From NCBI GenBank assembly GCA_963556255.1, contig OY744612.1, forward strand, positions 19,485,057 through 19,549,056: a DNA stretch of 64,000 nucleotides. Reading direction: 5' to 3'. This DNA comes from Allolobophora icterica. Taxonomy: Eukaryota > Annelida > Clitellata > Crassiclitellata > Lumbricidae. Made by a program: the position numbers and the translations under genes. The notes below the pieces were generated by a model, which was given only the letters and a program-made list of their open reading frames with translations, made no database searches and was not told where the DNA came from. Shown here piece by piece: positions 13,901 through 16,900 of the stretch (positions within the stretch are counted from its first letter, which is position 1; every line of letters starts with the position of its first letter).

Positions 13901-16900
13901 TTGTCTCATACAGAGAAACGGTGAGCGAGGAGTCAGACAGGATGTGTCTGTCCAAGTCTCCAAACAAACACAATCGTCTATACATGAAGGCCAGGCCTAT
14001 GCCCGAAGGACTTTCCGAGGATATCGACAAAGTACGAACAAGATTCTTATTATATGCAAACAGATAAAATTGCAGACAGTAACAATAGCATTAAATATAT
14101 TATTGAAATATTCAATTCAGCCAAGTTTCGTTTAGAGTTACTGAGGTGTGACTTCACACTAGTTTAGGTGAATATACTAGTATTTGAAAAGCAACGATTG
14201 AATGAAGTGTGGTGGTTGCAAATGGTGATCATTTTGTGCTGAATTATTTATTGAGGTTCACACAACTTCCGAACAATAAGACTGAAGCAAAACTAGCATA
14301 AAAAGAACATCCGAATTCAAACATGATAACGGAATTAATTTTTAGCCTTGTGATTATAGTTTCTTACAAACTGGTTTCCTTTTAAAGGGTGACGTGAAAC
14401 CTCGTCAGGAGGCCAAGGAACGTGCTAGGTACCTGGCTGAGAAGTATGACTACGATGCGACAGAAGCCCGTAAGATCTGGTGCTTTGGTCCAGAGACCAA
14501 CGGACCCAACATGGTGATTGACTGTACAAAAGGAGTCCAGTATCTCAACGAAATCAGAGACAGCATTGTCGCTGGCTTCCAGTGGGCTTCAAAGGAGGTA
14601 ATACTAAAGCAAAGTCTTATCAAGTAAGCTTTTGTGTGAGAGTTGGTTGCTTATGATGCTTTACTGCGATTGATCCTGCTGAATTTTATTCGACGAGTAA
14701 ATCTTGAGGTCGTCATATTGTTCTGAAGCAAGCCAGTTAATTGACTAAATTAACTATTCTACAGTTGAATCCAAAGAAGCAACTGTATACTGTCTTGTAC
14801 GCTAGTCTTTGTTGTAATTGTTATTTCTTTGTAATTGTAAGAACAAATTGTGTAGTAGAGATTTTATGTAAGTGTATGCTTATGATCGGGGGTACCCTCG
14901 ACCTAACAACACACAACCAGAGTTGAATAAAACGGTCTTCATGTGTTTATGGGAAAGAGGCAAAGATAGGCCGAGATGATTGAGTTTCAGGTAGCCAGGT
15001 AGCTTATTTCAGAAAGAAGGGCTGATCAAGTAAACTATGGCCTGTGGAAGTTAGGGACAACCTTGCACAGCAGATCAAACCAGATCTGCAGTCACTGATG
15101 GAAGAGACTATAATATTGAGACACATTGCTCCTAAGATGAGCACAGTCTGCAAGACAATTATGAATAAGCTTTCGTAGCTTAACGTTTAAAATATTCAGT
15201 GCATCTTCGTATAATTATGTAACCATGCAGTGCAATTCATCCTATAGGAGATTGGATGTATGACCAAGCCTATGCACCAAACAGCCAAGCCGCAGCATGT
15301 AAGCGAACTGGCTGATATGCTGGATGTATCTCCTCCCTACCCATCCGCTCATTGAAAGCATTTTATTTCCCCGGTGCCTCCACGTTGAGAGAGCCTCTGA
15401 ACAGCTTCTACTGCCTAGAGGCGCTTTACAAAGTCCCTAATACAATACAATATTGTCACAATACTGTGTTTTGCAATGTCAGATGTTAGGTCTGGAATTA
15501 AGGCCTTTGTGTTACTACAGTACCTCACAAAAATGACAAAGTCACTGAAATTGTTTGAATCTAATTATTGCTTCTAAATTCACACTAATCGTAAGTGAAG
15601 TTACAACAAAAATTGCCACACTAAAACAGTCTGTGACTTTAGCTTCTTTGAAATTTAGCTGCTTGCTAGTGGTGCTTTTCTCCAATTGATCCTGCTGAAA
15701 CTACTCCATGCAAGTAGTGTGTGTGTGGTCTTTTTTTTATTTCATTCTCAAGCAAGCTGAAAATAGCGTCCTGGATCTTACTGAATAATGGATGTATATG
15801 GTTATTTGTATAGTGCCTTACAAGAACCTCACGAAGGCGCTATATAATACCAAATCTAAAATTGCAGGGTGGTCTATCATTTCATGCAAGGGTTGCCATG
15901 AAGATATCTGGTACTGGCATGACTTTATCTGGGATTTTTACTGCACAATTTCAAGATATTGTAAATTATTAAAATTCTGTATCTTGAGGCCACTGGTTAT
16001 TATGAACTACTACTATTTATAATGTAATGACATTTACCAACTGATGATCTGTACAGGGTGTGCTTTGCGAGGAGAACATGCGAGGAGTTCGCTTTGACAT
16101 CCATGATGTGACGATTCATGCTGATTCCGTCCAACGTGGAGGTGCTCAGATCATTCCAACTGCAAGAAGATGCTTCTGTGCTTCTGTTTTGACTGCTGCA
16201 CCAAGACTTATGGAACCAGTCTACCTGGTTGAGATTCAGGTAACAACTTTGATCCGAGACTGATTCATGCCGAGCAGTAATATGTCCTTGATATGACAAA
16301 GCATTCACAAAAATCGAACACTAAGCAAAATATCAGTTTCGCTTGATTTTACGATGAACATAGGACCATGAGCAACGAAGCTGGAACTAAGCAACCATGG
16401 TGCAATGTTCTTCATAAACATTCAGCTGCAGTTGTATGTATGACCTTTCTGGTAGAACTAATCGAAAGGTATTTGCAAAAATTTTCATATATCAAGAGTT
16501 GCCTTTTCTTTTATCTTGTAGTCGCCTGAGGCCGCAGTCGGAGGTATCTACGGAGTCCTCAACAGAAGACGTGGACATGTGATTGAAGAGAACCGTGTCA
16601 TTGGAACACCCATGTTCATTGTGAAGGCTTTCCTTCCTGTCAACGAGTCCTTTGGTAAGGTTGCTGGTTTGGTTCATTTATTAATTCGGCTCTGCTGGTG
16701 CCAGGAATTAAGCTGTTGCTGTGTTTTTAAGAATTGGCCATGATCTTGTAAATGTACTTTAAATAAAAACATTAATTGTAGGAAAGTAAAATTATGGCAG
16801 ATTTCAGCTTTATTTGCTGATTTGTGATTTAGTACAATTTTACATTGTACCATATATCAGTATAAACTGATCTGAATTAATTCTATAAACAAGTTTTTCA

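What the first reader, a model, noticed from the sequence alone, without database searches (positions are those of the whole stretch)
16132..16134. eEF2 with glutamine at the diphthamide histidine
The sequence shows CAA (Gln) in HADSVQRGGAQ, where eukaryotic and archaeal EF2 have HADAIHRGGGQ. That His (715 in human, 699 in yeast, 699 here) is the residue modified to diphthamide, and it is essentially invariant in eukaryotes. The rest of the gene is intact across 11 exons. A protein with Gln there cannot be modified and should be immune to ADP-ribosylating toxins that need diphthamide. Inference: either a specialised paralogue or a lineage that has lost the modification at this locus.
Basis: partly seen in the sequence, partly recalled or inferred. 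Interest (0 to 1): 0.88.

Follow-up and report, generated by a model that had tools for sequence, protein, structure and literature searches.

The report
Earthworm eEF2 copy lacking diphthamide histidine
An animal genome, most likely a lumbricid earthworm's, holds two neighbouring eEF2 genes (eEF2 moves the ribosome along its message) with open reading frames, and one of them encodes glutamine where its sister copy and the 222 related proteins readable there have the histidine that becomes diphthamide; it would likely make a second eEF2 that cannot be modified there, nor be disabled by toxins that need that mark.

Summary
The codon is real: CAA (Gln) at 16132-16134, residue 699 of an 842-aa eEF2 with open frame, splice sites and stop intact. 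The own genome (1.12 Gb; mitochondrial ND2 nearest to Aporrectodea) holds a tandem sister gene about 53 kb upstream with the canonical HADAIHRGGGQ. Two DPH1/DPH2-type loci are present, with weaker DPH5 and DPH6 signals. So the lineage probably keeps diphthamide, and the window gene is a paralogue that lost the acceptor. The copies differ at 44 residues (dN 0.028, dS 0.140). Of 329 near-invariant columns the sister departs at 0 and the window copy at 6, four of them at the tip: L693I, A697S, I698V, H699Q (permutation p 0.00045). Neutral drift over its age rarely leaves the frame open (1 of 5000 simulations). None of 223 retrieved homologues has Gln there (222 His, 1 gap). Best reading: a constrained, diphthamide-free second translocase, perhaps proof against ADP-ribosylation. 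Expression is untested; a young copy under relaxed constraint is the main rival.

The parts
16132..16134 (+). CAA codon, Gln699, at the diphthamide acceptor position
   Evidence: His in 222 of 223 retrieved homologues, one gap
16114..16146 (+). Altered domain IV tip loop, codons 693-703: IHADSVQRGGA against LHADAIHRGGG in the sister gene (L693I, A697S, I698V, H699Q, G703A)
   Evidence: clustering test
5288..5296 (+). CTTCCTCTC pyrimidine run, TOP-like, candidate transcription start region (predicted)
   Evidence: the sister gene has a longer tract at the aligned place
5298..5369 (+). Predicted 5'UTR and start codon (ATG 5367-5369, donor GTTCGT at 5370), exon 1
   Evidence: 4 mismatches to the sister gene in the 80 ungapped columns 5298-5377
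7956..8170 (+). Coding exon 2 (starts GTG AAC TTC)
9140..9327 (+). Coding exon 3
9666..10108 (+). Coding exon 4, followed by a GC donor that the sister gene shares
10776..11028 (+). Coding exon 5
11459..11654 (+). Coding exon 6
12874..13132 (+). Coding exon 7, 1.2% different from the sister gene
13780..14031 (+). Coding exon 8, holds SPNKHN (P580, K582, H583 kept)
14388..14597 (+). Coding exon 9
   Evidence: end corrected
16057..16239 (+). Coding exon 10, domain IV tip, the most diverged coding exon (9.3%)
16522..16654 (+). Coding exon 11, 0.8% different from the sister gene
16957..17150 (+). Coding exon 12 with TAA stop at 17148-17150

Best explanation
The window holds a tandem duplicate of the eEF2 gene with an open reading frame that encodes Gln instead of His at the diphthamide position, beside a sister gene with His, and it likely makes a second translocase that cannot carry diphthamide. 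Shown: the open frame and splice sites, the Gln codon, the sister gene, clustered replacement at the domain IV tip, and conservation of the four GTPase motifs checked and of P580, K582, H583, H694 and D696. Inferred: the mRNA is made; the protein still drives translocation, as other mutants of this site do, with a somewhat weaker hold on the codon-anticodon pair; lacking diphthamide, it would escape ADP-ribosylation by diphthamide-dependent enzymes while the His copy would not. The mechanism I commit to is a diphthamide-free backup translocase that would keep part of elongation running when the modified pool is ADP-ribosylated.
For: Open 842-aa frame, six Pfam domains above their cut-offs. dN/dS about 0.2 between the copies. 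Neutral half-branch simulation leaves no stop in 1 of 5000 runs, and half the intron gap rate predicts about 32 indels in the coding sequence; 0 stops and 0 indels are seen. W departs from 6 of 329 near-invariant columns, 4 of them in codons 693-699; U from 0. Outside codons 693-714 the polarised replacements are 15 on W against 11 on U. The 5'UTR/start block differs at 4 of 80 columns while introns are at K2P 0.162. Published: yeast eEF2-H699N works like wild type in canonical elongation assays (PMC4861600 passages); H699N and H699I strains live (PMC3585130 passages); CHO cells with one unmodifiable eEF2 allele survive ADP-ribosylating toxins (PMC2816718 abstract and passages).
Against: No transcript or peptide evidence. 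W has more derived replacements than U (21 against 11, 12 ambiguous, binomial p 0.11) and a longer branch (0.047 against 0.028); some are at well-conserved places (R10H, Q64C, M245A, Y714C), as relaxed constraint would give. Apart from H699Q and L693I, the tip changes occur in a few other homologues (S697 in 1, V698 in 2, A703 in 4 of 223). The Gln form was seen in no other species, so its persistence across speciation is unshown. The open-frame test shows past constraint, not present use: drift over only a quarter or an eighth of the intron distance left 157 or 850 of 5000 simulated frames open. Yeast H699 mutants are not harmless: they are temperature-sensitive (PMC3585130 and PMC11651573 passages) and shift frame more often (PMC6193676 passages). 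Toxin pressure on this animal is shown by nothing here, and no study of H699Q itself was seen.
Confidence: 0.5

Rival explanations
1. A young duplicate under relaxed constraint on its way to loss: little expressed, with the tip changed because nothing holds it any more.
For: W has more derived replacements (21 against 11, p 0.11) and changes at well-conserved residues; lineage-specific pair; no relative with Gln found; a recent release from constraint could leave the frame open (157 and 850 of 5000 runs at a quarter and an eighth of the distance).
Against: Zero stops, zero indels and intact splice sites despite intron K2P 0.162; replacements outside the tip are nearly as few as in the sister (15 against 11); the near-invariant departures are clustered rather than scattered.
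Confidence: 0.28
2. A tissue- or stage-specific translocase tuned for different reading-frame behaviour (for example more -1 frameshifting on chosen messages) rather than for escape from ADP-ribosylation.
For: Published tip changes (H699 substitutions, H694N, I698A, P580H) raise -1 frameshifting in yeast (PMC6193676 passages); W changes 698 and 699 together.
Against: No expression data; the two promoter regions are still alignable, the 5'UTR closely; I698V is milder than I698A.
Confidence: 0.18
3. Sequencing or assembly artefact, or an allele mistaken for a second gene.
For: Only the assembled sequence was available; no reads.
Against: The five tip changes are separate base changes in separate codons; the two copies stand on one 54.4-Mb contig about 53 kb apart with introns at K2P 0.162 and of different length, too different for two alleles of one locus.
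Confidence: 0.02

Closest known systems
Canonical eEF2 (yeast EFT1/EFT2, human EEF2)
   Same: Same domains, GTPase motifs and domain IV contacts; the best-scoring solved chains are named elongation factor 2 (the output gives no species).
   Different: Gln at the diphthamide acceptor, plus I693, S697, V698 and A703 in the tip loop.
CHO PR328 cells, heterozygous eEF2 Gly717Arg (PMC2816718, abstract and passages)
   Same: An unmodifiable eEF2 coexisting with a normal one; the mutant half keeps translation going when the other half is ADP-ribosylated.
   Different: A laboratory-selected allele with His715 kept but not modified; here it is a separate natural gene with the acceptor itself replaced.
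Archaeal EF-2 paralogues without the diphthamide motif (Narrowe et al. 2018, Genome Biol Evol; content recalled: the paper is not held; only its reference was seen)
   Same: A second EF-2 gene lacking the modifiable tip beside a normal one (as I recall it).
   Different: Ancient and archaeal; this is a recent tandem duplicate in an animal.
Yeast eft2 H699N and H699I laboratory mutants (PMC3585130, PMC4861600, passages)
   Same: Acceptor His replaced; viable, and H699N active in canonical elongation.
   Different: Single replacements made in the laboratory; Gln together with other tip changes was not among those seen.

Membership tests
eEF2 translocase | Domains GTP_EFTU, D2, III, IV and C-terminal | tested here: met
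   six Pfam families above their cut-offs for W; for the sister U five of six, EF-G_D2 falling just short at 26.3 against 27 bits
eEF2 translocase | GTPase motifs AHVDHGKS, DSPGH, NKMD and RCITIKS | tested here: met
eEF2 translocase | Closer to eEF2 than to EFTUD2/Snu114, EFL1 or EF-G | tested here: met
   1543 bits to the best eEF2 chain, 638 to the U5 116-kDa protein, 457 to 5anb_K (EFL1 by recall of its name), 187 to EF-G; groups with clitellate eEF2
eEF2 translocase | Diphthamide-acceptor His at the domain IV tip | tested here: not met
   Gln699; so it descends from eEF2 and would work like it, but is not a canonical diphthamide-bearing eEF2
eEF2 translocase | Supports translocation on 80S ribosomes | not testable with these tools
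   needs a bench assay
Diphthamide-free second EF-2 beside a normal one | Coexists with a His-bearing copy in the same genome | tested here: met
Diphthamide-free second EF-2 beside a normal one | Diphthamide pathway kept in the genome | tested here: inconclusive
   two Diphthamide_syn loci; four DPH5-like exons, each under the whole-gene cut-off, in a search that also rang in 1 of the bacterial controls; DPH6 one weak stretch with a TGA inside, E 9e-4, in a search that also rang in 1 of the bacterial controls; DPH3 search unanswered; DPH4 and DPH7 not searched
Processed or decayed eEF2 pseudogene | Loss of introns, or stops and frameshifts | tested here: not met
   introns kept, no stop or indel in 842 codons

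The most novel reading that the evidence does not exclude
A natural ADP-ribosylation-proof translocase in an animal: an earthworm has fixed a second eEF2 gene whose tip was rebuilt to work without diphthamide, so that part of its translation cannot be shut off through that residue. It would be the first eEF2 seen here with the acceptor replaced.
Probability: 0.25. Interest if true: 0.88.

Novelty: new variant of a known kind. Interest (0 to 1): 0.62.

Why it matters
Why eukaryotes keep a many-gene pathway to modify one histidine of eEF2 is, as I understand it, an open question studied mainly with laboratory mutants. A natural gene pair in one animal, one copy modifiable and one not, on the same ribosomes, would let the cost and benefit of diphthamide be measured directly. 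It would also show whether animals can evolve dominant protection from eEF2-targeting ADP-ribosyltransferases by duplicating the target.

Tried and rejected
Lineage-wide loss of diphthamide: not supported, because a His copy and two DPH1/DPH2-type loci exist, with weaker DPH5 and DPH6 signals. Processed pseudogene: rejected, introns kept. EFTUD2 or EFL1 misread as eEF2: rejected. Older, shared Gln form: looked for with a search confined to residues 682-722, which gave 129 candidates, 121 under the threshold and 120 listed; no Gln among the 223 distinct proteins retrieved. One search listed 120 of 7993 matches, and that database is clustered at 90% identity, so a relative with Gln could be unlisted or hidden inside a cluster. 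G703A is not special: 4 of the 223 homologues have Ala there. Faster overall evolution of W: suggested but not significant. Gene conversion: exons 7, 8 and 11 differ by 9 of 644 bases against 51 of 587 in exons 9, 10 and 12, and intron 11 is at K2P 0.042; this suggests patchy conversion that spared the tip exon, but was not tested formally. Rfam and tRNA scans of the window: nothing.

Full report
Observation. Window 16132-16134 is CAA and in frame. Joining the eleven coding exons at 7956-17150 behind an ATG gives an 842-residue eEF2 with no internal stop; the codon is residue 699, the same number as in yeast, in IHADSVQRGGAQ. Of 11 introns, 10 are GT-AG and one is GC-AG; the sister gene shares the GC donor. 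Six eEF2 Pfam domains score above their cut-offs, and the four GTPase motifs checked and P580, K582, H583, H694 and D696 are kept.

Where it is. The own genome held is 1.12 Gb in 328 contigs, with the window on a 54.4-Mb contig. The best named eEF2 match is the leech Helobdella robusta, 93%. ND2 from the assembly's mitochondrial contig is nearest to Aporrectodea caliginosa (78%), and the named records ranked above the first Amynthas are Aporrectodea, Eisenia, Dendrobaena and Lumbricus (contig). Aporrectodea is in Lumbricidae; I recall the same for the other three. I therefore take the animal to be a lumbricid earthworm; this is an inference, and the species is not settled.

The sister gene. 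A domain IV search of the genome scored 11 candidates and gave 5 matches: two exons each of two eEF2 genes on contig 12, and one EF-G that I read as bacterial on a 46-kb contig. The second eEF2 (U), about 53 kb upstream start to start, also has an open 842-residue frame, and has CAT and HADAIHRGGGQ. The homologous stretch runs from the promoter region to the 3'UTR with alignable introns, so this is a DNA-level tandem duplication. In a tree of 30 proteins U and W are sisters (99/96) next to Helobdella (91/90), with branch lengths W 0.047 and U 0.028. A whole-protein search of the genome for further copies did not complete, so 'two copies' rests on domain IV alone.

Is the change selective or decay? 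The copies differ at 126 bases and 107 codons, 63 synonymous and 44 not; dN 0.028, dS 0.140. Introns differ by K2P 0.162 over 3653 aligned bases with 94 gap openings. Simulating neutral drift of the coding sequence over half that distance gave a stop-free frame in 1 of 5000 runs, and half the intron gap rate predicts about 32 indels; none of either is seen. Drift over only a quarter, or an eighth, of the distance left 157, or 850, of 5000 runs stop-free, so a recent release from constraint is not excluded.

Focus on the tip. Among 329 columns at least 98% identical in at least 150 homologues, U departs at none and W at six: R10H, K660R, L693I, A697S, I698V, H699Q. Four within 11 codons has permutation p 0.00045; for all 44 differences, five in 11 codons has p 0.036. 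The width of 11 was chosen after seeing the motif; the position was not. Polarised with 14 outgroup proteins, 21 replacements are W-derived, 11 U-derived and 12 ambiguous (p 0.11). Six of the 21 fall in 693-714, leaving 15 against 11 elsewhere. So the excess in W sits largely at the tip. Against this, W also changes well-conserved places elsewhere (Q64C: Gln in 201 of 206 homologues with a residue; M245A: Met in 207 of 214), and the tip changes other than H699Q and L693I occur in a few homologues (S697 in 1, V698 in 2, A703 in 4 of 223).

Rarity. Of 223 distinct homologues retrieved have His and one has a gap; none has Gln. The second search drew its words from W's own tip, so Gln forms should have been favoured. 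One search listed only 120 of 7993 matches. In print I saw no report of an animal eEF2 gene lacking this His in the titles and abstract starts listed by searches. Several of those lists were capped (12 of 398 papers, 15 of 2,090), and the library holds open-licence papers only.

Pathway. The genome has two Diphthamide_syn loci, four DPH5-like exons on one contig, each under the whole-gene cut-off, and one weak DPH6-like stretch with a stop inside. The last two families also rang in a bacterial control, so they are weaker evidence. This fits an animal that still makes diphthamide on U; DPH3, DPH4 and DPH7 were not established.

Mechanism. In a published 80S structure diphthamide, helped by His583, Asp696 and His694, holds the codon-anticodon duplex (PMC8674143 passages). 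Yeast eEF2-H699N is as good as wild type in canonical peptide synthesis but poor on a viral IRES (PMC4861600 passages). H699 substitutions and neighbours such as I698A raise -1 frameshifting (PMC6193676 passages). H699N yeast grows worse at high temperature but survives diphtheria toxin expression (PMC11651573 passages). CHO cells with one unmodifiable allele survive because half their eEF2 escapes (PMC2816718 abstract and passages). By analogy W would be a working, somewhat less frame-tight translocase that cannot be ADP-ribosylated at this site. Every step after the DNA is inference.

Verdict. The value lies in a natural modifiable/unmodifiable pair in one animal; it is held back by the lack of expression evidence and of a second species.

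Noticed in passing
window 10109-10110: The intron after exon 4 starts with GC instead of GT in both eEF2 copies, so the GC-AG intron probably predates the duplication.
   Followed up: partly
window 12874-13132, 13780-14031, 16522-16654: Exons 7, 8 and 11 are 98-99% identical between the copies while exons 9, 10 and 12 differ by 8-9%; patchy gene conversion that spares the tip exon would explain it.
   Followed up: partly
window 5579-6421 (-): A 280-aa open frame in intron 1 of the window gene that looks to me like a non-LTR retrotransposon piece; no Pfam match.
   Followed up: partly
window 19458-20048 (-) and 24528-24992 (-): Tektin exons on the minus strand just downstream of the eEF2 gene.
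   Followed up: partly
window 41535-42044 (-): A tetraspanin exon on the minus strand.
   Followed up: partly
L001 82-2169: A 695-aa uninterrupted EF-G frame on a 46-kb contig of the assembly, which I read as bacterial, perhaps a soil bacterium carried along; no relatives were sought.
   Followed up: no
G000:C8:61145195-61147845: Two COX1-like copies on opposite strands, each in two pieces with a TAG besides TGA codons: perhaps a nuclear insertion of mitochondrial DNA arranged as an inverted repeat.
   Followed up: no
window 5288-5296: The pyrimidine tract at the putative start of transcription is shorter in the window copy than in its sister; it might weaken TOP-type control.
   Followed up: no
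window 18106-18233 and many other arrays: Many long simple repeats, such as a perfect 42.7-copy TGG array; 34 rows at score 150 or more.
   Followed up: no
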